64,000 nt of DNA from Tyzzerella sp. Lineage in GTDB: Bacteria > Bacillota > Clostridia > Lachnospirales > Lachnospiraceae. Where the stretch lies: the NCBI GenBank assembly GCA_017472665.1, contig JAFUOS010000007.1:1-64000 (forward strand). The letters are read 5' to 3'. The number at the start of each line of letters is the position of its first letter. Positions within the stretch are counted from its first letter, which is position 1. Of this stretch, positions 1,803 through 55,052 are shown piece after piece. The notes beneath the pieces are model-generated. The model had not been told where the DNA came from. It made no database searches and saw only the letters and a program-made list of their open reading frames with translations. The translations under genes and the position numbers were made by a program.

Positions 1803-1832
1803 GTTTAATTAAGAAAATAGGAGGAACAAAAA

Positions 1833-2099
1833 ATGATTTCTAAAGAAAAGAAACAAGCAATCATGGCTGAATATGCCAGAACAGAAGGCGACACAGGATC
1901 TCCAGAAGTTCAAATCGCTATCTTAACAGCGAGAATTAACGAATTAACAGATCACTTTAAAGCAAATCCAAAGGATCACCACTCAAGAAGAGGTCTTCTT
2001 AAAATGGTAGGTCAAAGACGTGGTTTACTTGCTTACTTAAAGAAAACTGATATCGAAAGATACCGTTCATTGATCGAAAGATTAGGATTAAGAAAATAG
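1833..2099 (+). CDS. rpsO: 30S ribosomal protein S15
   Basis: S15 binds 16S rRNA in the platform of the small subunit and helps early assembly. The 88-residue product has the family's usual length and hallmark segments: [17 protein letters not shown] near residue 20, then HSRRGLL and the basic [10 protein letters not shown] stretch. A strong AGGAGG lies about 8 bases before the ATG. The gene is monocistronic, with its own promoter, a structured leader and a terminator (2148-2179). In many Firmicutes rpsO follows ribF, as it does here despite the IS insertion. Confidence 0.98.
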
Positions 2100-2147
2100 T
2101 TTTAAAGTTATCAAATTTTATACAGACACACAACACAACAACAGCAA

Positions 2148-2179
2148 AGAGGCAGACTTAAGGTTTGCTTCTTTTTTTG
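2148..2179 (+). terminator. Rho-independent terminator of rpsO
   Basis: A 10-bp stem (2148-2157 with 2163-2172, including two G-U pairs) has a 5-base loop and runs into a T-tract. Confidence 0.85.
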
Positions 2180-2260
2180 TCGAATTTTCTATTTCGGACT
2201 TGCCTATTTTACAGCAAAGTGGTAAAGTCTTGAGTATACTTTACGAAGGGAGAAAGAACG

Positions 2261-3538
2261 ATGAAAAAAGTACCGTTCGTTACCAAAGAACAATTAGAAC
2301 AGATTACAAAAGAATTTCCAACCCCATTTCATTTATATGATGAAAAAGGAATTCGTGAAAATATTAAAGCATTAAAAGAAGCATTCTCATGGAATCCAGG
2401 ATATAAAGAATATTTCGCAGTGAAAGCAACACCAAATCCATTTTTGATTAACATTTTAAGAGAATATGGCTGTGGCTGCGACTGCTCATCTTATACAGAA
2501 TTAATGTTATCAGAAGCAATTGGAGCAGTTGGACATGACATCATGTTTTCTTCCAATGCGACACCGGCAGAAGAATTTCGATTTGCGGACAAATTAGGTG
2601 CGATTATCAATTTGGATGATTTTACACACATTGATTTCTTAGAAAAAACCATCGGACATATTCCGGAAACGATTAGCTGCCGTTACAATCCAGGCGGATT
2701 ATTCAAAATCAGCAATGATATCATGGACAACCCTGGCGATGCAAAATACGGTATGACAACAGAACAACTATTTGAAGCATTTAAAGTATTAAAAGCAAAA
2801 GGTGCTAAAGAATTTGGTATCCACGCATTTTTAGCAAGCAATACCGTCACAAATGATTATTACCCGATGCTTGCAAAAGTATTGTTTGAAGTAGCTGTGA
2901 AGTTAAAAGAAGAAACAGGGGCTCACATTAAATTTATCAATCTGTCTGGTGGAATCGGTATCCCGTATCGTCCAGAACAGGAGCCAAATAATATTTATGC
3001 AATCGGTGAAGGTGTAAGAAAAGTATATGAGGAAGTACTTGTTCCAGCTGGAATGGGTGATGTTGCAATTTACACAGAACTTGGACGTTACATGATGGGA
3101 CCATATGGATGCCTTGTAACGACAGCGATTCATGAAAAACATACCCACAAAGAATATATCGGATGTGATGCTTGTGCAGTAAACCTCATGCGTCCGGCGA
3201 TGTATGGCGCATATCATCATATTACAGTTATGGGAAAAGAAAATGAACCTTGTGACCATAAGTATGATGTAACAGGTTCTCTTTGTGAAAATAATGATAA
3301 GTTTGCCATCGACCGTATGTTACCGAAGATTGATATAGGAGACCTTTTAGTTATCCATGATACTGGAGCACATGGATTTTCTATGGGTTATAATTACAAT
3401 GGAAAATTAAAATCAGCAGAAATTCTGCTGCAGGAAGATGGAACAGCAAAATTGATCCGTAGAGCAGAAACTCCAGCAGATTATTTTGCGACATTTGACT
3501 GCTTTGAAATTGGAAAAAAGATTTCGGTAAAGAAATAA
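2261..3538 (+). CDS. lysA: Diaminopimelate decarboxylase-like PLP enzyme (fold III)
   Basis: The enzyme probably removes CO2 from meso-diaminopimelate to give lysine. The 425-residue protein is a fold-type III PLP decarboxylase. The PLP lysine is in FAVKATPNP near residue 54, and a cofactor-binding glycine segment (NLSGGIGIP) lies near residue 228. An ELGRYMMGP motif sits near 274, and the catalytic CENND segment is near residue 340. In standard LysA a Gly-Ala-Tyr motif follows; here it reads GAHGFSMGYNYNG. A related arginine or ornithine-type decarboxylase is possible but less likely. The gene stands alone, with a good ribosome binding site (GGGAG) 8 bases before the ATG. Confidence 0.82.
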   Translation: MKKVPFVTKEQLEQITKEFPTPFHLYDEKGIRENIKALKEAFSWNPGYKEYFAVKATPNPFLINILREYGCGCDCSSYTELMLSEAIGAVGHDIMFSSNATPAEEFRFADKLGAIINLDDFTHIDFLEKTIGHIPETISCRYNPGGLFKISNDIMDNPGDAKYGMTTEQLFEAFKVLKAKGAKEFGIHAFLASNTVTNDYYPMLAKVLFEVAVKLKEETGAHIKFINLSGGIGIPYRPEQEPNNIYAIGEGVRKVYEEVLVPAGMGDVAIYTELGRYMMGPYGCLVTTAIHEKHTHKEYIGCDACAVNLMRPAMYGAYHHITVMGKENEPCDHKYDVTGSLCENNDKFAIDRMLPKIDIGDLLVIHDTGAHGFSMGYNYNGKLKSAEILLQEDGTAKLIRRAETPADYFATFDCFEIGKKISVKK

Positions 3539-3550
3539 ATAAAAAAGTAG

Positions 3551-3579
3551 TTGACTTTCATTAAAAATTGAGGTATTAT
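3551..3579 (+). promoter_or_regulatory. Promoter of the tRNA-Leu gene
   Basis: TTGACT (3551-3556), a 17-bp spacer and TATTAT (3574-3579), ending 37 bp before the tRNA. Confidence 0.75.
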
Positions 3580-3616
3580 AAACAAGTCGTTTGGAACACG
3601 AGAGTGTTCCAAATGT

Positions 3617-3699
3617 GCAGGAGTGGCGGAATGGCAGACGCACAAGACTCAAAATCTTGCGTAGGTGACTACGTGTGGGTTCAAGTCCCATCTCCTGCA
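3617..3699 (+). tRNA. tRNA-Leu (anticodon CAA)
   Basis: The acceptor stem pairs GCAGGAG (3617-3623) with CTCCTGC (3692-3698), with discriminator A at 3699. The anticodon stem-loop CAAGA-CTCAAAA-TCTTG places CAA at positions 34-36. A long variable arm (GTAGGTGACTAC) marks a class II tRNA, and the T-loop is GTTCAAGTC. The 3' CCA is not encoded. Confidence 0.96.
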
Positions 3700-3702
3700 T
3701 TG

Positions 3703-3735
3703 AAACCCTTGATTTTCAAGGGTTTTTCTTTTTTT
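3703..3735 (+). terminator. Terminator of tRNA-Leu
   Basis: A perfect 10-bp stem (3703-3712 with 3716-3725), a TTT loop and a T-rich tail follow the tRNA within 4 bases. Confidence 0.88.
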
Positions 3736-3747
3736 ATGATATAGACA

Positions 3748-3785
3748 AAAAGCAGCAGGCTTGTGTCCTGTTGCTTTTCTTTTTT
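3748..3785 (+). terminator. Second terminator downstream of tRNA-Leu
   Basis: AAAAGCAGCAGG (3748-3759) pairs with CCTGTTGCTTTT (3767-3778) around a 7-base loop and is followed by a T-run. It backs up the first terminator and separates the tRNA unit from the next gene. Confidence 0.75.
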
Positions 3786-3865
3786 ACAATAGAAATTACT
3801 TTATGAATGCAAAAAAGATTATCTTATAGTACAATAAGAACAATGACAAGATACACAGGAGAAAA

Positions 3866-5149
3866 ATGATGGAAGAACAAGAAAGACTAGAAAGACAAAG
3901 AAGAATGCAAAGGAAAAGACGAAAACAGAAAAGATTGAGACAGAGAAGAATTAGAGTGATTCTTAGTTTACTTGTATTGGTTTTGTTGATTGTATTTGTG
4001 TGGTTTTCATGTTCTCAAAAAGAAAAGGAAAAAGCACAGGAGACGTTACAGAATGTTGTTTCTGACGTGGAAGATGAGTCAGCTAAAGATAAAGAGCCTG
4101 AAGTCTACACGGAACCGGAAGTGGACATTCTCATGGTAGGCGACATTTTATTGCATGAAAATGTACAAGAAAGCGGGAAATTAGCCGATGGAACCTATAA
4201 TTACGACCATTTATTTGCTAATATCAAAGAAGATGTACAAGCGGCAGACATCGCAATTGCCAATCAGGAAGTAATCTTAGGGGGCAAAGAAATCGGTTTA
4301 TATGGATATCCGAACTTTAATGGTCCATACGAAGTTGGAGATGCACTGGTCAAAGCTGGATTCAATGTGATTTTACATGCGACCAATCATACCTTGGACA
4401 GAGGAAAGACGGCACTCGTAAATTGCATGAATTTCTGGAAAACTTCACATAGTGATGTGGCTGTGCTTGGTATTTTTGAAACGCAGGAAGCGTACGATAA
4501 CAATATTTATGTTTATGAAAAAGATGGACTTAAGATTGCCATTTTAAACTATACATATGGAACCAATGGGATGCCGACGCCGAGTGATATGCCATTTGCA
4601 GTAGCGATGCTGGAAGAGGAAAAAGTGATTTCAGATTTAGAAAAAGCAAATGAGATGGCAGACTTTGTAGTGGTATGTCCACATTGGGGAACCGAATATC
4701 GTCATGAACAGTCAGATGAACAAGAATATTGGGCAAACCTGTTTCTGGAGCATGGAGTGGATTTGGTGATTGGTACACATCCGCACTACATTCAGCCGGT
4801 TGAAATGTTGAGAGGCGAGAATGGCGAGCAGATGCTGGTATATTATTCTCTTGGGAATTTTATCAATTCTACCAGTGATAGCGGCCGTGGAACTGCCGAC
4901 CGAATGATTGGCGGCATGGCAAAAATTACTGTGGCAAAGACAGAAAATGGGAAAGCATACATCAAAGATTATGGAGTGGAACCATTAGTAACTCAGCTTT
5001 TGTATGGAACACAGGAGATTACAACTTACAAATTGGCGGATTACACAGAAGAACTGGCAGCACAGAATCAGATTTTGAAAAAAGACAGTGTTTTTAGTCT
5101 GGAATTTTGTAAGGAACTTAGCGCGGAAGTATTTGGAGAATTGTACTAA
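3866..5149 (+). CDS. CapA-family membrane-anchored protein (PGA_cap domain)
   Basis: CapA-like proteins have a metallophosphatase-like fold and are named from poly-gamma-glutamate capsule synthesis; most members, like this one, have no known substrate. The product begins with a very basic stretch of about 30 residues (Arg/Lys/Gln-rich), then a single membrane segment near residues 32-48 and an acidic linker. The PGA_cap domain starts at VDILMVGDILLHENV and contains IANQEV, HATNHTLDRG, VCPHWGTEY, IGTHPHYIQP and YYSLGNFI. Topology is cytoplasmic N-terminus and extracellular domain. No other capsule genes (capB, capC) are nearby, so a capsule role is not supported. The ATG three bases later (3869) is an equally good start. 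Confidence 0.85.
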   Translation: MMEEQERLERQRRMQRKRRKQKRLRQRRIRVILSLLVLVLLIVFVWFSCSQKEKEKAQETLQNVVSDVEDESAKDKEPEVYTEPEVDILMVGDILLHENVQESGKLADGTYNYDHLFANIKEDVQAADIAIANQEVILGGKEIGLYGYPNFNGPYEVGDALVKAGFNVILHATNHTLDRGKTALVNCMNFWKTSHSDVAVLGIFETQEAYDNNIYVYEKDGLKIAILNYTYGTNGMPTPSDMPFAVAMLEEEKVISDLEKANEMADFVVVCPHWGTEYRHEQSDEQEYWANLFLEHGVDLVIGTHPHYIQPVEMLRGENGEQMLVYYSLGNFINSTSDSGRGTADRMIGGMAKITVAKTENGKAYIKDYGVEPLVTQLLYGTQEITTYKLADYTEELAAQNQILKKDSVFSLEFCKELSAEVFGELY

Positions 5150-5169
5150 ATTCAACTTTATGGTAGAAT
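5141..5169 (+). promoter_or_regulatory. Promoter of the aldo/keto reductase gene
   Basis: TTGTAC (5141-5146), a 17-bp spacer and TAGAAT (5164-5169) with an upstream TGG that extends the -10. It overlaps the end of the capA-like gene. Confidence 0.5.
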
Positions 5170-5204
5170 AGCAGATATATGTGATTTAAAACGGAGGTCG
5201 TGAT

Positions 5205-6323
5205 ATGTATTATAAACAATACGGAAATACAGATATGAAAGTTTCTGCCATTGGGCTTGGAACCCTTAGATACGACGAAGAAGACATTAAAGCGGGAAGA
5301 TTTGAAAAATGTGCGGAAATCCCACTTTATGCATTCGAAAAAGGAATCAATTATTGGGACACCGCTCCGTTTTATTGTGATGATAAGAGTGAAATCGTAA
5401 CTGGGATTGCTCTTTCACAAGTAAAGAGAAGTGACGTATATGTGACATCGAAAACCAATTTTAATACCCTTGGCAGCAATCCGACGAGAGATGATTTTCG
5501 GCGCAGATTGGAAATGTCATTAGACCGACTGAAAACAGATTATATTGATTTTTACCATATGTGGTGCATGATGAATCTGGAATCATGGGAAAAACATATG
5601 GAAGCATTATATAAGTTCTTTGAAGAGGCAAAATCGGAAGGCTTGATTCGTAATATTGCGTTCTCTTCCCATATGCAGGGAAATGATATTGAAACGGTAG
5701 TGGAGACTGGAAAATTTAAAGGAATGTTGATTGGTTATAATGCACTCAACTATCGCTTCCGACAGAGCGGAATCGAGGCGGCTCATAAAAATGGAATGGG
5801 CGTTGTTGTTATGAATCCATTGGGCGGAGGTACGATTCCACAGAATCCAGAGGCATTTCGATATTTGACAGAGGGAACAGATTTGACGGTTCCACAGGCG
5901 GCACTTCGCTTTGTCGCTTCTCACAAAGAAATCACAGTTACATTGGCAGGATGTACCACAAAAGAACACATAGATGATGCGGTAAAAGCTGTGGAAGGGT
6001 TAGAAGAAAGACCTGCAAAAGAAATTGTGAAAGCATATGAAGACAGAGGAGTTTCTTTGAATAATTTATGTACTGGATGTGGATATTGTGTGAAGGGCTG
6101 TCCAAAGAAAATTGAAATTCCAAAGTTTATGGATGCTTATAATCAATACATATTTACAGGAGAACAGGAACGCGTTTTGGGACGTTTGGATAGCCATTGG
6201 GATATGGAAAAGAAAATTGCACAAAATAAAGCGAAAGAATGTATTGCTTGTGGAAAATGCGAGAAAGCGTGTACACAGCACTTACCAATCATTGAGAGAT
6301 TAAAGGAAATCGCAGCGTTATAA
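5205..6323 (+). CDS. Aldo/keto reductase with C-terminal ferredoxin-type Fe-S domain
   Basis: This is an NAD(P)H-linked carbonyl reductase fold with an added iron-sulfur module, common in anaerobic Clostridia; its physiological substrate is unknown. Residues 1 to about 270 form the (beta/alpha)8 barrel, with NYWDTAPFYCDDKSE (catalytic Asp and candidate Tyr), VTSKTNF (Lys) and DFYHMW (His). Near residue 287, CTGCGYCVKGCPKKI gives one Cys cluster, and near 346 CIACGKCEKACTQH gives a second, together a 2[4Fe-4S] ferredoxin-like set. Electron exchange with ferredoxin is a reasonable inference. GGAGG precedes the ATG by 8 bases. Confidence 0.9.
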   Translation: MYYKQYGNTDMKVSAIGLGTLRYDEEDIKAGRFEKCAEIPLYAFEKGINYWDTAPFYCDDKSEIVTGIALSQVKRSDVYVTSKTNFNTLGSNPTRDDFRRRLEMSLDRLKTDYIDFYHMWCMMNLESWEKHMEALYKFFEEAKSEGLIRNIAFSSHMQGNDIETVVETGKFKGMLIGYNALNYRFRQSGIEAAHKNGMGVVVMNPLGGGTIPQNPEAFRYLTEGTDLTVPQAALRFVASHKEITVTLAGCTTKEHIDDAVKAVEGLEERPAKEIVKAYEDRGVSLNNLCTGCGYCVKGCPKKIEIPKFMDAYNQYIFTGEQERVLGRLDSHWDMEKKIAQNKAKECIACGKCEKACTQHLPIIERLKEIAAL

Positions 6324-6346
6324 GTTGATAAAAAAGGAGCAGACGA

Positions 6347-8962
6347 ATGAGTGACAAGATCGTTTTGATAGATGGACATAGTATTTTAAACCGTGCATTT
6401 TACGGAGTGCCGGATTTGACAAATTCAGAAGGACTTCATACAAATGCTATCTATGGATTTTTAAATATTATGTTCAAAATCTTAGAAGAAGAAAAACCAG
6501 AATATTTGACGGTTGCATTTGATGTACATGCGCCAACATTTCGCCATGAGATGTACGCAGATTATAAAGGTACCAGAAAACCGATGATGGAAGAACTTCG
6601 CCAGCAAGTACCTGTTATGAAAGAGGTCCTCAAAGCTATGGGCGTAAAAATCATCGAACAGGCAGGATTGGAGGCAGATGACCTTTTGGGAACGCTTTCA
6701 AAACGATGTGAAGCACAGGGAATGGATGTTTCTATTATCTCTGGAGACCGAGACTTATTACAACTTGCCACAGAGAAAGTGAAAATCCGTATTCCAAAGA
6801 CGAAACAGGGCAAAACGGAAATAGAAGATTATTATGCAGCGGATGTAAAAGCCCGTTATGAAGTGACGCCAAAAGAATTCATTGATTTAAAGGCTTTGAT
6901 GGGTGATACTTCTGATAATATTCCGGGAGTGCCAAGTGTTGGCGAAAAAACGGCCACAAAAATCATTACAGAATATGGTTCTATTGAAAATGCATTTGCC
7001 CATGTAGATGAAATCAAACCTCCGCGTGCAAGTAAGGCATTGCAGGAACACTATGATTTGGCACAGCTTAGTAAAGTGCTTGCAACGATACATGTAGATG
7101 CAGATTTTGCATACGATTTGGACCAGGCAAAATTAGGCGACTTATATACAGAAGAAGCCTATATTTTATTCCAAAGACTGCAATTTAAAAATTTATTGTC
7201 CCGTTTTGAAGTGTCTGCACCGGCAAATAAATTAGAAGATGCATTTAAAATAATTACGAAAAAATCAGAAGCAGAAAAGATTTTTAGCAATGCAAAATCA
7301 CAAAAAGTAGTAGGGGTTTCTTTTTATAAAGATACAAAAAATGTGTTGCCATTGTTTATCAACAATGTTGGACTGACAGGTGTTGGAGTTGCATTTGGAA
7401 CATCAGACATTTATGTTTTGAAGACAGAGGGTGACATGTCTATTGATTATCTTCTAAATCAGGTAGAAGAGCTTTCAAAATTGGTAGAAGTACTCTCTAT
7501 CTTTGGTGTGAAAGAAGCGATGGAATATATTCCAAATGTGAATCAGTCGGCGTGTTTTGATGCAATTGTAGCCGCCTATCTTTTAAATCCATTGAAAAAT
7601 GATTATGATTTCATGGATGTGGCAAGGGAACAATTGGATATTTTAATAGATGTGAAAGCAGAGGATTTACAAAAGAGCTTTTATGAGGCTTATGCTGCCT
7701 ATGCTTCTTATGAGCTTCTTACAAAGAAATTAGAAGAGACAGGCATGAAGAAGTTGTTTGACGAGATTGAGATGCCGCTTGTATTTACACTTTATGACAT
7801 GGAAAAGAATGGTGTAAAAGTAGAAGCAGAGGCTTTAAGAATCTATGGTGAACAACTTGGAAACAAAATCGTGGAAGTGGAAAAACAGATTTATGAGCTG
7901 ACTGGAGAAAACTTTAACATTAACTCTCCGAAACAACTTGGCGTGATTCTGTTCGAAAAAATGGGACTGCCTCATGGTAAGAAGACAAAGACAGGCTATT
8001 CAACTTCAGCTGATATTTTAGAAAAATTAGCACCAGAATACCCAGTAGTATCTGATATTTTGAAGTACAGACAGCTTACGAAATTAAAATCGACTTATGC
8101 CGATGGTTTGGCAAATTTTATACAGGAAGATGGTCGTATCCATGGTAAATTTAATCAGACGATTACGGCGACAGGACGTATCAGCAGTACAGAACCGAAC
8201 CTACAGAACATTCCAGTTCGTATGGAGTTGGGACGTCTGATTCGAAAAGTATTTATCCCTGAGGATGGATATGCATTTGTGGATGCCGACTATTCGCAGA
8301 TTGAACTTCGTATTTTGGCGCACTGTTCTGGCGATGAGCAGTTAATCAATGCTTACAAAGAAGCGCGGGATATTCACAGGATTACAGCTTCGCAAGTGTT
8401 TCATATTCCATTTGATGAAGTCACAGATTTACAACGTCGTAATGCCAAGGCTGTAAACTTTGGGATTGTGTATGGAATCAGTTCATTTGGTCTAAGTGAG
8501 GACCTAAGTATTACAAAAAAAGAAGCGGCGCAGTATATTGAAAATTATTTCAATACCTATCCGGGAATTAAGAAGTTTTTGGACGACGCGGTAGCCCATG
8601 CAAAAGAAAATGGATATGTGGAAACCTTATTTGGCCGAAGAAGACCAGTCCCAGAATTATCATCCAGCAACTTCATGCAACGTTCTTTTGGAGAACGTGT
8701 TGCTATGAATTCGCCGATTCAGGGAACTGCAGCGGATATTATGAAGATCGCGATGATTGGCGTAAATAAGCGTCTGAAGGAAAATCAGATGAAATCAAGA
8801 CTCGTGCTTCAAGTACACGATGAGCTTTTAATTGAAGCACATCAGGATGAAGTGGAGCAAGTGAAAGAAATTTTGAAATATGAGATGGAACATGCGACAT
8901 CTTTATTAGTTCCATTGGATGTAGATATGCATGTTGGTGAAAACTGGTACGAGGCAAAATAA
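6347..8962 (+). CDS. polA: DNA polymerase I
   Basis: PolA fills gaps and removes RNA primers during lagging-strand synthesis and repair. The 871-residue protein has an N-terminal 5'-3' flap nuclease (residues 1 to about 290, with LIDGHSILNRAFYG, EADDLLGTL and GDRDLLQL). The middle 3'-5' exonuclease-like domain (about 300-470) lacks the usual DxE and other catalytic acids, as in Bacillus-type enzymes without proofreading. The polymerase domain carries motif A DADYSQIELR (646-655), motif B RRNAKAVNFGIVYG (about 697-710) and motif C QVHDE (about 822). It overlaps coaE by one base (TAATG), so the two are translationally coupled. Confidence 0.97.
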   Translation: MSDKIVLIDGHSILNRAFYGVPDLTNSEGLHTNAIYGFLNIMFKILEEEKPEYLTVAFDVHAPTFRHEMYADYKGTRKPMMEELRQQVPVMKEVLKAMGVKIIEQAGLEADDLLGTLSKRCEAQGMDVSIISGDRDLLQLATEKVKIRIPKTKQGKTEIEDYYAADVKARYEVTPKEFIDLKALMGDTSDNIPGVPSVGEKTATKIITEYGSIENAFAHVDEIKPPRASKALQEHYDLAQLSKVLATIHVDADFAYDLDQAKLGDLYTEEAYILFQRLQFKNLLSRFEVSAPANKLEDAFKIITKKSEAEKIFSNAKSQKVVGVSFYKDTKNVLPLFINNVGLTGVGVAFGTSDIYVLKTEGDMSIDYLLNQVEELSKLVEVLSIFGVKEAMEYIPNVNQSACFDAIVAAYLLNPLKNDYDFMDVAREQLDILIDVKAEDLQKSFYEAYAAYASYELLTKKLEETGMKKLFDEIEMPLVFTLYDMEKNGVKVEAEALRIYGEQLGNKIVEVEKQIYELTGENFNINSPKQLGVILFEKMGLPHGKKTKTGYSTSADILEKLAPEYPVVSDILKYRQLTKLKSTYADGLANFIQEDGRIHGKFNQTITATGRISSTEPNLQNIPVRMELGRLIRKVFIPEDGYAFVDADYSQIELRILAHCSGDEQLINAYKEARDIHRITASQVFHIPFDEVTDLQRRNAKAVNFGIVYGISSFGLSEDLSITKKEAAQYIENYFNTYPGIKKFLDDAVAHAKENGYVETLFGRRRPVPELSSSNFMQRSFGERVAMNSPIQGTAADIMKIAMIGVNKRLKENQMKSRLVLQVHDELLIEAHQDEVEQVKEILKYEMEHATSLLVPLDVDMHVGENWYEAK

Positions 8963-48796: not shown

Positions 48797-48833
48797 CATG
48801 TATTGGGTTCAATGAAAAAATGAGGAGTTAGAG

Positions 48834-49313
48834 ATGAGAATCACAGTCATTACTGTTGGAAAAATCAAAGAGAAATATTTAAAAGATGCGATTGCGGAAT
48901 ATAGCAAACGTTTGAGTAAATACTGCAAGCTGGAGATTGTCGAAGTTGCGGATGAAAAGACGCCTGACAATGCCAGTGAGGTAGTGGAAAATTCGATTCG
49001 GTCAAAAGAGGCAGAGCGGATTTTGAAATATGTGAAAGAGGATGCTTACATTATTACACTTGAAATTAACGGAAAGCAACTGAGCTCGGAAGAATTGGCA
49101 GATAAGATCAATAAACTCGGTGTACAGGGAACTAGTCATATTATTTTTATCATCGGCGGTTCGATTGGATTGGGTGAGGAAGTGCTGAAAAAGTCAAATT
49201 ATGCGCTTAGTTTTTCAAAAATGACTTTTCCGCATCAGTTGATGCGTGTTATAATATTAGAGCAGATATATCGGAGTTATAGGATTATTAGTGGAGAACC
49301 ATATCATAAGTAA
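48834..49313 (+). CDS. rlmH: 23S rRNA (pseudouridine-1915-N3)-methyltransferase
   Basis: RlmH is a SPOUT-class methyltransferase acting on assembled 70S ribosomes. The 159-residue product has the knot region [14 protein letters not shown] and the C-terminal [20 protein letters not shown] plus GEPYHK, all diagnostic. It ends 35 bp before the accessory peptide locus; rlmH is a frequent neighbour of inserted accessory DNA in Firmicutes. Confidence 0.97.
49250..49255 (+). promoter_or_regulatory. Possible extended -10 for the peptide locus, inside rlmH
   Basis: TGTTATAAT (49247-49255) is an extended -10 about 90 bp before the first gene of the locus. The -35 region is poor and the bases are also constrained by conserved RlmH codons. 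Confidence 0.28.
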
Positions 49314-49348
49314 TAGATTCAGAAGAGTGTCTTAAAGAGAGTTTATAT

Positions 49349-50200
49349 ATGAATAGTAAAGCGAAGAATATTGAAGAGCATTATTTTGATTTAGTAGAAA
49401 GCATAGGAAAAGAAAATATCGATTTTTTTGGAATAAATGTTATAGATGCAGACGAAAGAGATTTAATATATAAAATCTATCACTCTGAAAAAGTAAGTAG
49501 AAATAGAAATCATCCACTTGTTGAATTTGTATATCAAAAGGAGATGCTGCGTTATTTTGCAGATGTCACAGATTCTGAACATCCTGAATTGACACGACTT
49601 GATATATCATTATATAATAGAAATGATTCAAACATGAACGATTTGTTTGATTACTTACTACAAACGGTTCCTTACTTCAAATCGCATGTTTTTGACGTGA
49701 AGATGACTTCTAAAATGAAAATTACAGATGTACAGGATTACCACTTCGCATCCCTTTATCATGTGGGATTGATAGAGAATAAAAAAGTTCCAGAACTTTT
49801 GAAGTTTCATTTTTTTACAAGATGGTGTATTGATCCGAATCATCATACAAAAGAAGGATATCGTGATGCTGAATATTTGGCATATTTGAAATCGATTAAT
49901 ATCAAAGAATATCTTATTTTGGCAGAAAAAGCAGCTTTTTTGCTTGAAAAATGCGGTGGTCATTTATGGATGGCCGGAATGGATATTTCCCATGAAAAAA
50001 CAAAGTACAAAATTTATTTAAAAAATATTAGTAATGCTTACAAGTATCTTCCACATATACTGGGAGAAGCTGCAAATAAGCATTTGCAAGAAATAGAATG
50101 TTGGAATGACAAGCATAAGGAATGTCGTTTGGCGGGAATAGCAATTGCATTGGATTCATATAATGTTTCATCATTGAATCTTTATTATCATTTAAGTTAA
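49349..50200 (+). CDS. Unrecognised protein upstream of a putative RiPP precursor
   Basis: I do not recognise this 283-residue protein. It is soluble, without signal peptide or membrane segments, and its DNA is visibly more AT-rich than the neighbours. Two late segments repeat a pattern of a Gly/Ala-Asp turn followed by an alternating strand: AGMDISHEKTKYKIYLKN (about residues 208-225) and GIAIALDSYNVSSLNLYYHLS (263-283, landmark only). Strand patterns like these, and a C-terminal LYYHLS, recall ABBA-fold prenyltransferases of the cyanobactin PatF/TruF type (about 300 residues), but the resemblance is weak. The position before the peptide and radical SAM genes suggests a tailoring or recognition protein. 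No strong ribosome binding site is seen; AAAGAGAG lies 12 bases upstream. Confidence 0.7.
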   Translation: MNSKAKNIEEHYFDLVESIGKENIDFFGINVIDADERDLIYKIYHSEKVSRNRNHPLVEFVYQKEMLRYFADVTDSEHPELTRLDISLYNRNDSNMNDLFDYLLQTVPYFKSHVFDVKMTSKMKITDVQDYHFASLYHVGLIENKKVPELLKFHFFTRWCIDPNHHTKEGYRDAEYLAYLKSINIKEYLILAEKAAFLLEKCGGHLWMAGMDISHEKTKYKIYLKNISNAYKYLPHILGEAANKHLQEIECWNDKHKECRLAGIAIALDSYNVSSLNLYYHLS

Positions 50201-50203
50201 TAT

Positions 50204-50232
50204 AGCAGAACATCAATGAGATGTATGCTGCT
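50204..50232 (+). other. Imperfect hairpin between the unknown gene and the peptide gene
   Basis: AGCAG and ACATC (50204-50214) pair with GATGT and CTGCT (50220-50232) across a small internal loop. It lacks a clean T-run, so it may be a weak terminator or an RNA-processing site. Confidence 0.4.
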
Positions 50233-50274
50233 TTATTAAATAAAATTCTATTTATAAGAAAGGAGCGCATAAAT

Positions 50275-50427
50275 ATGTTTGATACAATTATTTCTGCAGA
50301 AGCTATGAATCAGCTTGAAGAGAGACTTAGCGTTCTTTTAGGTCAGGGTGTTAAAGCTGAAACAAAACAGTCTGGCGAACTTAACATGAGCGGTTGTGCA
50401 AGCAGCAGCTGCATGGCTTGGGATTAA
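50275..50427 (+). CDS. Putative RiPP precursor peptide
   Basis: A 50-residue peptide with AAAGGAG about 9 bases before its ATG. Residues 1 to about 38 look like a leader: amphipathic and acidic, with EAMNQLEERLSVLLGQGV forming a likely helix (residues 9-26). The C-terminal tail SGCASSSCMAWD (39-50) holds the only two Cys (41, 46), a run of three Ser (43-45), and the only Trp (49), ending in Asp. Such a leader plus short Cys/Ser-rich core, followed by a terminator-like hairpin and a radical SAM/SPASM gene, is the classic layout of a RiPP locus. The exact cleavage site and family are unknown to me. A longer frame from 50221 ignores the ribosome binding site. Confidence 0.75.
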   Translation: MFDTIISAEAMNQLEERLSVLLGQGVKAETKQSGELNMSGCASSSCMAWD

Positions 50428-50455
50428 TTTCTCAAAGACAAAACAATCCTAAAGG

Positions 50456-50487
50456 GCGTCTGCGGGCTTTCCCTGCAGACGCTTTTT
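50456..50487 (+). terminator. Terminator-like hairpin after the peptide gene
   Basis: GCGTCTGC (50456-50463) pairs with GCAGACGC (50475-50482) and the helix extends by GGG/CCC past a bulge; TTTTT follows. Placed between precursor and enzyme genes, it would let the peptide be made in excess over the enzymes. Confidence 0.82.
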
Positions 50488-50530
50488 GGTGATAAAATGA
50501 AAACAAATAGAAGGAAAAAGGGGAAATTTT

Positions 50531-51646
50531 ATGAGGAAAAATCTTGATAAGTATATGAGTCAGCCAGATACAAAAGTGATTATACTAACGCTGACAAATC
50601 ATTGTAATCTTGCTTGTGTATATTGTTATGAACATAACAAGGAAATATGTACGATGGATTTGGATACAGCGATGGATATTGTTGAGAGAGAAATGACAAT
50701 GGACGATGGCTCGAATTTTGTATGTGTGTATTATTTTGGTGGAGAGCCTTATCTTGAATTTGAAAAGATTAAAAAAATCCATGCATTTTTAAAAAGTAGA
50801 GAATGGCCCAAAAAATGGTTTGCGTTTACAACCACAAATGGAACAATGGTTCATGAAGAAGTTCAGCAGTGGCTTCTGGAAAATGATGACACTATTGAAG
50901 TATATGTTAGTATTGATGGCACGAGAGAAATGCATAATCATAATCGAAGTGGCTCCTATGATAAAATTGACATTGATTTTTTCGCGCGCCATTTTCCTTT
51001 TGCTAAAATGACTATTACGGAAAAAACACTGCCTCATCTTGCGGAAGGTGCAATTTCCCTTCACGAAAAAGGGTTTGAGGTGTCTGCAAATATGGGACAT
51101 GGTGTTAAGTGGGAAGAAGATAGTCCTAAGATCTTAGCAGAACAGCTACATATATTGATGAATTATTATTATGAACATCCGGAATATAAACCTGCCAATA
51201 CTTTAAATCTTCCTATTTTGGATTTAGAACCAGAAACCGAACGACCAAGACGTTTTTGTGGTGTTGGTCCTATGATGCGTTCTTATGATGTGAATGGCGA
51301 AGCTTATCCATGTCACGCATTTGCGCCACTTTGTATTGGAAAGGAAAAAGCAGCTCTTTCTCAAAAACTTGATTTTAGCTGTCCATTACAGCTGATTGAA
51401 CTGGATGAGAAATGTAGAAAATGTCCTGTGGTTGGATATTGTCCTACCTGCTACGGAATTCAATTTGGGGCTACTGGAAATGTTTATCATATGCCAGAGG
51501 ACCATTGCAAAATGATGAAGGTGCAATTTTTATGTAATGCAAAGTTTAAGTTTACGTTGTATCAGATGGGACGTCTGGATCTGACACCAGAACAAGAAGT
51601 ACGCTTTTTGCAGAATATTAGAGCTGTACAAAAGCTTGCAGATTAA
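50531..51646 (+). CDS. Radical SAM/SPASM peptide maturase
   Basis: Radical SAM/SPASM enzymes use 5'-deoxyadenosyl radicals to cross-link or modify peptide residues, for example thioethers in sactipeptides and ranthipeptides. The 371-residue protein has the cluster motif C25-x3-C29-x2-C32 (TNHCNLACVYCYEH), the GGEPYLEF motif, and a C-terminal SPASM region (about 240-335). That region carries RRFCGVGP, GEAYPCHAF, CRKCPVVGYCPTCYG and EDHCKMMK, enough Cys for two auxiliary 4Fe-4S clusters. No separate RRE (PqqD-like) gene is seen. It follows the peptide by about 100 bp and the kinase gene follows 15 bp after its stop. The substrate is inferred to be the 50-residue peptide. Confidence 0.93.
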   Translation: MRKNLDKYMSQPDTKVIILTLTNHCNLACVYCYEHNKEICTMDLDTAMDIVEREMTMDDGSNFVCVYYFGGEPYLEFEKIKKIHAFLKSREWPKKWFAFTTTNGTMVHEEVQQWLLENDDTIEVYVSIDGTREMHNHNRSGSYDKIDIDFFARHFPFAKMTITEKTLPHLAEGAISLHEKGFEVSANMGHGVKWEEDSPKILAEQLHILMNYYYEHPEYKPANTLNLPILDLEPETERPRRFCGVGPMMRSYDVNGEAYPCHAFAPLCIGKEKAALSQKLDFSCPLQLIELDEKCRKCPVVGYCPTCYGIQFGATGNVYHMPEDHCKMMKVQFLCNAKFKFTLYQMGRLDLTPEQEVRFLQNIRAVQKLAD

Positions 51647-51661
51647 AGAGAAGTGGACACT

Positions 51662-52666
51662 ATGAAAGAATATTATAAATTGTTTCCATCTATTTGGGAA
51701 GGGTATGAGGCTGGCGAACTTTTGGGAAGCGGGTCTTTTGGTGATGTATATACGTTAAAAAAGAAAGGTTCACTCGAAGCCCCTGTTGAAGCATTCAAAG
51801 AGGTTGCTGTTCCTCCTGCATCTGCAGGCGGTCTTGATGAAGCGCTTTTCCAAGGGTTGGATATAGAGGGTGCAAAATATTATTATGAGGGCATGAAGCA
51901 GAAAGCATTGGAGGAAGCTGAAATCATGAAAAGGTTTTCTGATTGTCCGAATATAGTGCAGTTTAAAGATTATCAGGTAAAGGAACTACCAGAAGATTAT
52001 AACGAATATGGATGGATTATTTTTGTTAGAATGGAATTGCTGCAGCCTTTTAAAGATAAACTTTTTCAGGATGGGATTACAATACGTGAGGTTGCCCGGC
52101 TCATTATAGATCTTTGTACCGCTTTGGAAGCATGTCATGCGCAAGGTATTCTTCATCGTGATATTAAGCCGGAAAATATATTTTATTCGCCAATATCGAG
52201 AACGTTTAAATTGGGTGATTTTGGTATCGCCTGCTATATGACTCGGTTAACCGAAGAAAAAGGATTACCCGGCACATTGACACATATGGCACCAGAGGTT
52301 TACCGCGGGAATTCTTTCGATTATGAGTCTGATCTCTATGCCGTAGGGATGATTTTATATAAATTATTAAATGATAATAGGGTACCATTCCTGCCAGATT
52401 ATCCAGAAAAATATTCGCCGATTATGAGAAATCAGGCAATCCGACGCCGCTTAGAAGGCGAAGAGATACAAATGCCTAGTATTGTTCGTAAAAGCATAAA
52501 CGCTTCACCATTGGCTGTGAAAGTGGGAGATGTATCGGATGAAGCAGTACAAAATTTAGCTTCGATTGCGAAAAAAGCAATTGCTTCAGAACGACAAAAT
52601 AGATATGTATCCGCAACGGATCTAAAACAAGCTTTGATTATGTGGGAAAGTTCATTTTATAACTAA
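51662..52666 (+). CDS. Hanks-type Ser/Thr protein kinase in the RiPP locus
   Basis: All kinase landmarks are intact: glycine loop G22-S-G-S-F-G27 with V29, ATP-binding Lys K46 (AFKEVAV), catalytic HRDIKPEN (H165, D167), metal-binding DFG (186-188), and MAPE followed by the SDLYAVGMILYKLL helix. The 334-residue protein is soluble, without the membrane segment and PASTA repeats of the housekeeping PrkC kinase. ATG 51662 is preferred; a GTG at 51653 is possible. The gene is closely coupled to the radical SAM gene (15 bp). Phosphorylation of the peptide (Ser 43-45) or of a regulator is a hypothesis, not shown by the sequence. No partner phosphatase is visible. Confidence 0.93.
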   Translation: MKEYYKLFPSIWEGYEAGELLGSGSFGDVYTLKKKGSLEAPVEAFKEVAVPPASAGGLDEALFQGLDIEGAKYYYEGMKQKALEEAEIMKRFSDCPNIVQFKDYQVKELPEDYNEYGWIIFVRMELLQPFKDKLFQDGITIREVARLIIDLCTALEACHAQGILHRDIKPENIFYSPISRTFKLGDFGIACYMTRLTEEKGLPGTLTHMAPEVYRGNSFDYESDLYAVGMILYKLLNDNRVPFLPDYPEKYSPIMRNQAIRRRLEGEEIQMPSIVRKSINASPLAVKVGDVSDEAVQNLASIAKKAIASERQNRYVSATDLKQALIMWESSFYN

Positions 52667-52684
52667 TATAAAGGAGGAAGAAAC

Positions 52685-52981
52685 ATGGTACATCACATAG
52701 TTATGTGGAATTTTAAACCAGAAATTGAAGAAGCAAAAAAAGAAAACATCAAAAAGGAGATGGAGGAAAATCTGTGTGCGCTTGTAGGCAAAGTTCCAGG
52801 CCTTTTAACCGTAGAATTTGTAAGCAATCCGATATCATCCAGCACACATGATATCGCACTAGTTACAACGATGGAAAGAGCAGAAGATGTTGCGGTATAT
52901 GCAACGCATCCAGAACATGTAAGAGTGGCAGATACATATGTACGTCCTTACGTAACAAATCGTGCCTGCTTAGATTACTAG
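52685..52981 (+). CDS. Dabb (stress-responsive A/B barrel) protein
   Basis: A 98-residue Dabb domain, starting MVHHIVMWNFKPEIEEA, with VPGLLTVEFV and THPEHVRVADTYVRPYV. Members are dimeric barrels of mostly unknown function; a few are enzymes, such as polyketide cyclases. It starts 18 bp after the kinase stop with a strong AAAGGAGG site, so it is probably in the same transcript. It could be part of the peptide system or simply a downstream passenger; Dabb genes are widespread singletons in Lachnospiraceae. Confidence 0.88.
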   Translation: MVHHIVMWNFKPEIEEAKKENIKKEMEENLCALVGKVPGLLTVEFVSNPISSSTHDIALVTTMERAEDVAVYATHPEHVRVADTYVRPYVTNRACLDY

Positions 52982-53007
52982 AAGACAATGTTATAATCAA
53001 CACATGC

Positions 53008-53054
53008 AAAAAGCGCAACAAACAATCCCATTTGGAATGTTTGCTGCGCTTTTA
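53008..53054. terminator. Bidirectional terminator between the Dabb gene and the ABC permease
   Basis: AAAAGCGCAACAAAC (53009-53023) pairs with GTTTGCTGCGCTTTT (53039-53053), one mismatch, with T-runs on both strands. Confidence 0.8.
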
Positions 53055-55052
53055 TTATCTTAATTTTTTCGCAGTATCCTTCGGAAGCATAACTGAGAGA
53101 TATGGAATCCCATCATCCGTCATAAGTGCTACGTTGCAATCGTAATAATCTTCATAATTGTAACCAGAATCTGTCTTATAGAACATTTCTGATAAAACGA
53201 ATTGGTCCTTGATTTCATTCACCTGTTCTAAATCTGAAACTTCCACATATGCATCCTCGAAACAAATCTCCAAGGAGATGATCTCATATTTGTCGAAAAT
53301 CTCTTCATTAATAGAACCATATTTCGCTGTATTATCATTGCTTTCAATGGAAGCATCTAATAGTGCAATAGTCTGTGTAAATTGCGGATATACGTAGCAT
53401 GAGAAATTACGATTATCCGATTCATCCTCATAGTATACAATAAAATGTCCCAAAGCAGCTTCTGTTGACTCTTGCGAGTAGGTCAGTTCTGTGTATTCAG
53501 CCAGGTAAGTTTCAAAGAGATGTTCCATTTCATTTGTTTCCATGTGTAAAGTAATGGAACTAACCATGTCATTCCAAGCAATATATTTTATTTCGCTCCA
53601 GTCGGCAGAATATAAAGCGCAATAATCATCTTTGAATTCTTTTGTAGCATAAATTTTGTCAAACAATTCCTGGTTCTGTTCCAAATCCATGAAATAGTCT
53701 CGTTTCTTTGTTGTACCATTTTTTAGGCGATATTCAAAACGAATCCAAATGGCATTTTCATTGTTTCCATCTAAATCTTGTTCCACGATGTTCTGAGCTA
53801 ATAAGAAAGCGTCATCCAGATATTCACCAGAAATGCCATTCCCCTCAAGGCCTACATCATACCAGTAGCAGCTATTGTTTACCCCAATCGCAATTGATTC
53901 TAATTTATCCAGTTCAGGTAAATAATCGTCGTATTTGAACCAGTCAAACCAGAAGAAACAAGCGATTCCTATGCAGGCAATAAAGCAGCAAATCATTTGT
54001 TTCTTGTGCGACAATAAACCGCGGATATCAAACTGAAAGATACTTTCAATAATGCCGTGCAGCAGTATTGTTCCAATCACAAAACCAAAAATCATCCAAA
54101 TATTAGAACCAACTGAAGTAACTTCGCTCAAGTACAAACCAAGATAGAGTGTCAAAGGAATTACCAGTAAAATGCGGATTACAGGACTACATTTTTCAAA
54201 TGCCATCGCACGACCAGCAGATTCGGAAGGTCGTTTGATAAATAGGAAATAAGTAAGTAATCCTAATAGGCAAATTAAAACTAGAATAATAACAAAATCT
54301 ATTACGTGGTTACTAGCAGTCCAACCTGAGTCGTATGAATAGTCACCTATCAATTTATAGGCAGAACCAATTGGTGAAAAATAGGTCAAATAACTAAGCA
54401 GTTTTTCGTTTTCAGATGTAACATAGGTTTTGAAGTGTACTGCTGCATAAGAAGGATAGATGTATCGTAAGATAATCGGTACATATGCAGAAAATACACA
54501 AAACCCGAAAAAGGCAATTACCGAATTTCCAGTCATAACCATTGCCAATGCGGCTGTAAGATACGTTATAAGGAAAACAACTATCATACACAAATAATTC
54601 CATAACAAGTTCATAATGAGTGGGGTGGTCGCAAAGCCATATATTGTTAATATCAACATCTCCAGCGCAATACAAAGTGTAAAAGGAATCAGGAACACAA
54701 GAAAGGAACTGGAAATTCGAAGTCCAAACCAAGTTTTTCTACGGATTGGAAGTGATTCATAAAAGTCCACCTGTTTCTTAGAATGTAAATACCGAAAAAA
54801 GTCAAATGCAAGTAAAATTGCAATAAGTACGATTGGTACTACATATCCGTAGCCTGGCTGTGTTATATCTCTCAATTGATTCTTAAGCCAATCTTTTGAA
54901 GAATGAACCACATGTTCCTGAGCCCAATTTTGTATGCTCAAAAAGAACACCAGAAACTGCACAAAAAATACCAGACTGGTTGCAAATATAGAAGCAACAT
55001 GATGTTTTAATGTTTCTCTAATGGATTTAAATAATGAGATTCTGCATGTCAT
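53055..55052 (-). CDS. ABC transporter permease, YtrC/D-like, with large C-terminal domain
   Basis: The 665-residue permease has about nine hydrophobic segments in its first 370 residues. They are followed by an extracytoplasmic domain of about 290 residues that I do not recognise beyond its placement in DUF6449-type permeases. The segment RYLHSKKQVDFYESLPIRRK near residue 90 is common in GntR-linked permeases. It overlaps the ATPase gene by 26 bp. With the ATPase and YtrA-like regulator it forms a unit of the type that responds to envelope-acting peptides in Bacillus and Clostridia; the substrate is unknown. Confidence 0.82.
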   Translation of the reverse strand: MTCRISLFKSIRETLKHHVASIFATSLVFFVQFLVFFLSIQNWAQEHVVHSSKDWLKNQLRDITQPGYGYVVPIVLIAILLAFDFFRYLHSKKQVDFYESLPIRRKTWFGLRISSSFLVFLIPFTLCIALEMLILTIYGFATTPLIMNLLWNYLCMIVVFLITYLTAALAMVMTGNSVIAFFGFCVFSAYVPIILRYIYPSYAAVHFKTYVTSENEKLLSYLTYFSPIGSAYKLIGDYSYDSGWTASNHVIDFVIILVLICLLGLLTYFLFIKRPSESAGRAMAFEKCSPVIRILLVIPLTLYLGLYLSEVTSVGSNIWMIFGFVIGTILLHGIIESIFQFDIRGLLSHKKQMICCFIACIGIACFFWFDWFKYDDYLPELDKLESIAIGVNNSCYWYDVGLEGNGISGEYLDDAFLLAQNIVEQDLDGNNENAIWIRFEYRLKNGTTKKRDYFMDLEQNQELFDKIYATKEFKDDYCALYSADWSEIKYIAWNDMVSSITLHMETNEMEHLFETYLAEYTELTYSQESTEAALGHFIVYYEDESDNRNFSCYVYPQFTQTIALLDASIESNDNTAKYGSINEEIFDKYEIISLEICFEDAYVEVSDLEQVNEIKDQFVLSEMFYKTDSGYNYEDYYDCNVALMTDDGIPYLSVMLPKDTAKKLR

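What the first reader, a model, noticed from the sequence alone, without database searches (positions are those of the whole stretch)
49349..52981. Candidate undescribed RiPP locus: unknown protein, short peptide, radical SAM/SPASM enzyme, Ser/Thr kinase, Dabb protein
Seen: five same-strand genes with short spacing, including a 50-residue peptide ending SGCASSSCMAWD, a terminator-like hairpin after it, an intact radical SAM/SPASM enzyme and an intact soluble Hanks kinase. Known: radical SAM/SPASM enzymes next to small peptides make sactipeptides, ranthipeptides and cyclophane peptides. Inferred: the peptide is the substrate, and the kinase and the unrecognised first gene are extra tailoring or control functions. 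I know of no named RiPP class with this gene set.
Basis: partly seen in the sequence, partly recalled or inferred. Interest (0 to 1): 0.88.

Follow-up and report, generated by a model that had tools for sequence, protein, structure and literature searches.

The report
Modified-peptide locus with likely prenyltransferase
A gut-type bacterium carries a small conserved set of genes that appears to make a chemically cross-linked peptide, and the unrecognised first gene probably attaches a fatty (prenyl) group to the tryptophan at the peptide's end.

Summary
The genes are there as described. The conserved cassette is four genes, not five: unknown protein A (49349-50200), 50-aa peptide (50275-50427), radical SAM/SPASM enzyme B (50531-51646) and Hanks kinase K (51653-52666). 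Dabb was found in 0 of 13 related loci. The peptide lies directly upstream of B in 10 of 10 close relatives where that region is visible, with a near-invariant core ending GC....C.AW[DA]. A strong hairpin follows it in 8 of 8 loci folded, of 11 with a peptide. So the peptide is very probably B's substrate.

New here: A is probably a peptide tryptophan prenyltransferase of ABBA-like build (inference). A-family genes sit beside three differing radical-SAM precursor types that share a Trp at or next to the C-terminus. A type-I IPP isomerase gene (DMAPP supply) abuts three of these loci and is the only one found in those genomes. No paper on prenylated radical-SAM RiPPs turned up in eight searches.

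The parts
49349..50200 (+). Gene A, 283 aa: probable peptide (Trp) prenyltransferase of ABBA-like build (inferred)
   Evidence: No credible family match; full or nearly full homologue in the genomes of 7 of 11 close loci; contexts with C-terminal-Trp precursors and IPP isomerase
50275..50427 (+). Precursor peptide, 50 aa, core ending SGCASSSCMAWD; Cys41, Cys46 and Trp49 invariant in 10 aligned sequences
50453..50490 (+). Hairpin followed by T-run after the peptide gene (likely partial terminator; inferred)
   Evidence: Fold of 50425-50530, z -5.10; not listed by the pattern scan; hairpin in 8 of 8 loci folded
50531..51646 (+). Gene B, radical SAM/SPASM peptide maturase, 371 aa; first Cys at residue 25, so no room for an N-terminal RRE
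   Evidence: PF04055 1.8e-09; best NCBIfam model PapB 140.4 bits, cut-off 340; Cys ligands
51653..52666 (+). Gene K, Hanks-type Ser/Thr kinase, 337 aa
   Evidence: PF00069 1.4e-35; motifs; in the cassette in 9 of 11 close loci
52685..52981 (+). Dabb-domain gene: neighbour, not part of the conserved cassette
   Evidence: PF07876; 0 of 13 related loci

Best explanation
A radical-SAM RiPP biosynthetic cassette. Shown: peptide, SPASM enzyme B and kinase K recur together, with A in most members, in Lachnospiraceae and other Clostridia. Inferred: B cross-links the core through the two invariant cysteines (thioether-like, -2 Da per bond). A, an ABBA-like enzyme, transfers a prenyl group from DMAPP or GPP to the Trp at or next to the C-terminus; three relatives carry their own IPP isomerase for the donor. 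K phosphorylates the peptide (for example the Ser of SGE) or a partner, or regulates the pathway. No protease or dedicated exporter was seen in the cassette, and the core is nearly fixed, so the product is more likely one defined signal or cofactor-like peptide than a diversifying bacteriocin. The hairpin after the peptide gene probably gives precursor in excess of the enzymes.
For: Peptide directly upstream of B in 10 of 10 close loci where visible, 8 invariant residues; last 17 codons against L009: 7 same, 7 synonymous, 3 changed; hairpin in 8 of 8 loci folded. K in the cassette in 9 of 11 close loci. A in 7 of 11. A-family genes beside three differing precursor types ending in W, WD or WA. 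IPP isomerase in 3 of 13 genomes behind the loci, each the only one found and each abutting the locus, against 17 of 299 genomes of the window's family with one anywhere. The L020 protein is the best non-A match of the A profile, score 35.5, P 1.8e-4. Repeated helix-hairpin units in A3 self-alignment.
Against: A has no significant match to PagF, PirF, LimF or NphB: LimF 24.6 against best decoy 24.2; PagF rank 21, NphB 32, the three-sequence profile 67, PirF 141 of 200. The repeat signal is weak (score 21.6 and 21.0; decoys reach 19.4 and one 35.3), and the true ABBA profile used as positive control shows no such repeats. No structure. A is absent from 3 of 11 close genomes and only a remnant in one, yet their peptides keep the Trp. 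A-less relatives L029 and L031 also have Trp in the precursor. The window genome (65% complete) and G1182, G626 and G318 show no IPP isomerase. No chemistry was tested.
Confidence: 0.55

Rival explanations
1. The same RiPP cassette, but A is another kind of tailoring enzyme or a peptide-binding partner, and the IPP isomerase neighbours serve something else.
For: No significant similarity of A to any known prenyltransferase; one A-homologue is followed in frame by a PqqD/RRE-like stretch (E 0.014), a role in peptide binding; Trp is kept where A is lost.
Against: Isomerase gene only in loci of the A/A' family among the 13 genomes and abutting each; Trp-ended precursors in three contexts.
Confidence: 0.25
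2. An ordinary ranthipeptide or sactipeptide locus of the PapB kind with accidental neighbours A and K.
For: PapB is B's best NCBIfam model (140.4 bits) and the peptide has two conserved cysteines.
Against: The score is far below the 340-bit cut-off; B has no room for an N-terminal RRE (sequence); K and A recur with B and the peptide in varying order.
Confidence: 0.1
3. Not a RiPP: a kinase/radical-SAM regulatory or anti-phage defence module in which the small ORF is a regulator.
For: K resembles kinases of defence systems (mad6 1.2e-42, PD-T4-6 3.5e-35) and B weakly matches viperin models (2.2e-09) in PADLOC.
Against: Those kinase matches fit any Hanks kinase; B fits peptide maturase models far better; the small ORF has a leader-core layout with invariant Cys and Trp.
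Confidence: 0.04

Closest known systems
PapB/freyrasin ranthipeptide system
   Same: SPASM radical SAM enzyme beside a short Cys-bearing precursor; PapB is B's best NCBIfam model
   Different: Score 140 against a cut-off of 340; B lacks room for an N-terminal RRE; two core cysteines only; A and K are extra
Cyanobactin prenyltransferases (PagF, PirF, LimF, KgpF) and lanthipeptide prenyltransferase MppC (PMC12715784, parts 1 and 2 of 3 read)
   Same: Inferred ABBA-like build and RiPP prenylation, Trp in KgpF and MppC
   Different: No significant sequence match of A; radical SAM enzyme instead of YcaO/macrocyclase or LanM
PalQ/PalX and ComQ/ComX (PMC10853753, parts 1 and 2 of 4 read)
   Same: Prenylation of a RiPP Trp in Gram-positive bacteria, the C-terminal one in PalX; ComX is a quorum signal
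   Different: Isoprenoid-synthase fold with Asp-rich motifs, which I do not see in A's alignment (by eye); the sections read name no radical SAM enzyme

Membership tests
Radical SAM/SPASM RiPP maturase | CX3CX2C motif, radical SAM fold family and SPASM cysteines | tested here: met
   PF04055 over cut-off; Cys columns
Radical SAM/SPASM RiPP maturase | Conserved short precursor beside the enzyme | tested here: met
   10 of 10 close loci where visible
PapB ranthipeptide maturase (NF047865) | Equivalog score of at least 340 bits | tested here: not met
   140.4 bits
Ranthipeptide/sactipeptide product | Cys thioether cross-link in the product | not testable with these tools
   Needs mass spectrometry
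LynF/TruF/PatF (cyanobactin) prenyltransferase | Sequence membership by NCBIfam models or profile comparison | tested here: not met
   No such NCBIfam match for 8 A members; hhalign not significant
ABBA prenyltransferase fold | Five alpha-beta-beta-alpha repeats forming a barrel | tested here: inconclusive
ComQ/PalQ-type prenyltransferase | Isoprenoid-synthase fold with Asp-rich motif | not tested
   Only judged by eye on the alignment
Hanks-type kinase | Kinase domain with catalytic motifs | tested here: met
   PF00069 1.4e-35; motifs

The most novel reading that the evidence does not exclude
A founds a new family of ABBA-type peptide prenyltransferases that act on radical-SAM-modified precursors, giving a new RiPP class that joins a radical-SAM cross-link, a prenylated C-terminal tryptophan and kinase phosphorylation in one ComX-like signal peptide of gut Clostridia.
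Probability: 0.35. Interest if true: 0.8.

Novelty: new variant of a known kind. Interest (0 to 1): 0.62.

Why it matters
In the papers seen, RiPP prenylation is described for cyanobactins, lanthipeptides, lasso peptides, ComX and PalX. A radical-SAM RiPP with its own prenyltransferase would be a new combination and a new Trp-lipidating enzyme family. A nearly invariant core across several gut lineages suggests one specific signal or cofactor, directly testable by co-expression and mass spectrometry.

Tried and rejected
Dabb as a cassette member: rejected, 0 of 13 loci. A as a database family: Pfam, NCBIfam, PHROGs, PADLOC and PDB profile searches gave nothing credible; one-member hits such as Lnu(B) at 4.8e-4 were taken as chance because 1 of 8 members matched. 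Direct proof of ABBA homology by hhalign against PagF, PirF, LimF and NphB failed. A in the class: 6 of 391 genomes, namely the window's own and five fragmentary matches of 14-17.5 bits taken as chance. Rfam on 48800-53100: 0 matches. Plasmid collection: no PagF relative; 12 records with B relatives at 22.5-35.2% identity. IPP isomerase loci L032-L050 (about 2.7-3.5 kb each) were scanned with A and B profiles: 0 of 19 held an A match, 3 of 19 a weak B-type match; the three wider contexts (L051-L053) hold other systems, so the isomerase alone does not mark this cassette.

Full report
Observation. The five genes are present as described. B is radical SAM, K a protein kinase, the last gene Dabb; A and the peptide have no credible match in Pfam, NCBIfam or PHROGs. 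The hairpin after the peptide gene is real (-33.9 kcal/mol, z -5.10), although the pattern scan lists no terminator. The window's assembly (1.66 Mb, 65% complete) holds one B at E<=1e-60, one A and 20 radical SAM matches in all. Its family name is not told by the tools; the record titles of the relatives say Lachnospiraceae, Clostridia, Ruminococcus, Oribacterium and the like.

Conservation. One pattern-based scan of 84,980 species genomes with B, which finds close relatives only, gave 13 loci: 11 close ones (L009-L019, 63-78% identity) and two distant ones (L020 38%, L021 32%). L011 and L017 look like one locus in two assemblies, so the close set is about ten independent loci. The peptide homologue lies 82 to 414 bases upstream of B in 10 of 10 close loci where the region is visible; in L018 the contig starts inside B. 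In an alignment of ten peptides (window and nine loci; L017 left out, same as L011) G25, E35, N37, G40, C41, C46, A48 and W49 are invariant and S33, G34 are kept in 9 of 10 (L010 differs). The ends are CMAWD, CMAWA or CQAWD. Against L009 the last 17 codons show 7 identical, 7 synonymous, 3 changed; over all 50 codons 12, 17 and 21. A hairpin of differing sequence sits between peptide and B in 8 of 8 loci folded (window, L009-L012, L014, L015, L019; L013, L016 and L017 were not folded), z -4.05 to -6.75.

K is in the cassette in 9 of 11 close loci. In the other two (L013, L018) the locus starts at a contig end beside the cassette; the best kinase matches elsewhere in those genomes are E 3.4e-24 and 8.5e-43, as general kinases give. 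A full or nearly full A is in the genomes of 7 of 11 close loci (L010, L013-L016, L018, L019; in L016 interrupted by a stop). L012 shows what looks like a remnant (E 0.007, 4.8e-4). None was found in the genomes of L009, L011 and L017. A precedes the peptide in the window, L010, L013, L016 and L019, follows K in L014 and L015, and lies about 3.4 kb after B in L018. Dabb: 0 of 13. The cassette is rare: B in 2 of 397 genomes of the family, window included, at E<=1e-60; A in 3 of 392 of the order, window included; in the class only the window and five weak fragments among 391.

What A is. Ten divergent sequences keep invariant D, K-x-K-x-Y and N-x-Y positions. Three lines suggest a peptide Trp prenyltransferase. 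First, context. A-family genes occur beside three precursor types, without evident similarity to one another otherwise, each next to a radical SAM enzyme and each ending in Trp or in Trp plus one residue: the window type; L020 and L077, Cys-rich precursors ending SSGW; and L028, ending DGATW, where the A-homologue runs in frame into a PqqD/RRE-like stretch (PF05402, E 0.014, 16.2 bits, below the 23.4 cut-off). In a fourth context, L027, A follows a different SPASM enzyme and I could not identify a precursor. The tie between A and the L020 protein rests on profile comparison: score 35.5, P 1.8e-4, next LimF 24.6 and decoy 24.2, among 200 targets. With a two-sequence L020/L077 profile it fell to 29.5 (P 0.002); in the reverse scan of 204 targets the window's A (22.4) and L028 (22.2) came first after self, hardly above a reversed sequence (21.2), and the A genes of L014, L015 and L019 in that set were not in the top 20.

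Second, IPP isomerase. In L010, L014 and L020 a type-I isomerase ORF overlaps the end of the neighbouring cassette ORF; it scores 97-102 bits with TIGR02150 (cut-off 105.8) and 6e-31 to 1e-33 with PRK03759, also just below cut-off. Whole-genome searches of the 13 genomes behind L009-L021 found exactly these three isomerase genes at E<=1e-12, whereas 17 of 299 genomes of the window's family have one, 13 of them at 103 bits or more. None was found in the window's genome, G626 and G318 (G593 only a 39.8-bit Nudix match) or G1182; there DMAPP from the usual pathway would have to do (inference).

Third, build. Alignment-averaged Chou-Fasman values suggest strand pairs near 25-45, 135-158, 206-225 and 261-281 with helical stretches between; the second unit of a five-unit model (about 78-92) is not predicted as strand. 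Suboptimal self-alignments join these units in 6 of 7 (A2) and 7 of 7 (A3) cases, while those of B and K scatter. Scores are modest (21.6, 21.0; 30 window proteins on themselves reach 35.3 once, then 19.4), and the PagF/PirF/LimF profile, a true ABBA set, shows no such repeats, so this is suggestive only. Direct comparison with PagF, PirF, LimF and NphB is not significant.

Mechanism. Shown: the recurring unit, the ligand cysteines of B, the kinase motifs. Inferred: B cross-links the core G-C-x4-C-x-A-W; A prenylates the Trp; K phosphorylates peptide or partner. B has no room for an N-terminal RRE (first Cys at residue 25), so leader recognition is open; in L028 that task may lie in the RRE-like stretch of the A-homologue. 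The nearly fixed core argues for one defined product. Trp also occurs in precursors of relatives without A (L029 CGCGWDCSSTKT, L031 CGSNWMQS) and is kept where A is lost, so a role of Trp in B's own chemistry is not excluded.

Literature. Read: PMC12715784 parts 1-2 of 3 and PMC10853753 parts 1-2 of 4. Passages only: PMC11002830, PMC13289728, PMC13290415. They describe prenylation in cyanobactins, lanthipeptides, lasso peptides, ComX and PalX; the 2026 review PMC13290415 has 0 occurrences of 'radical SAM' and of 'ranthipeptide'. Eight answered searches listed no paper whose title or abstract start describes a prenylated radical-SAM RiPP; one search listed 25 of 54 papers. Subscription papers are mostly not held. 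Names such as ABBA, CaaX-like motifs, RRE positions in PapB and RlmH are recalled.

Noticed in passing
window 48834-49349: The cassette begins about 35 bases after an rlmH-like gene (name recalled), and gene A is the AT-richest stretch nearby (GC 0.31-0.32 against 0.34-0.41 around).
   Followed up: no
window 49589-49618: A perfect sigma-70 consensus (TTGACA-18-TATAAT, 12 of 12) lies inside gene A upstream of the peptide; the scan as a whole found no more sites than shuffles (16 against 16.2).
   Followed up: no
L052 (G158:C27) 4483-8022: A peptide-arginase-like ORF, an IPP isomerase ORF with a LuxR-type HTH tail, a large radical SAM ORF and two ABC transporter ORFs upstream: perhaps another isoprenoid-linked RiPP system (labels recalled).
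   Followed up: partly
L051 (G278:C13) 3945-7035: A 483-aa radical SAM ORF, a small ORF ending KWFLCYC and an IPP isomerase ORF within about 3 kb.
   Followed up: partly
L031 (Phocaeicola massiliensis plasmid record OY725981.1) 1830-4843: A B relative at 35% identity with two nearly identical small precursor-like ORFs ending CGSNWMQS and CGSNWMRS, on either side of a peptidase-like ORF.
   Followed up: no
G626 (8.8 Mb, 730 contigs): About 50 kinase matches to K in one genome that also carries an A homologue.
   Followed up: no
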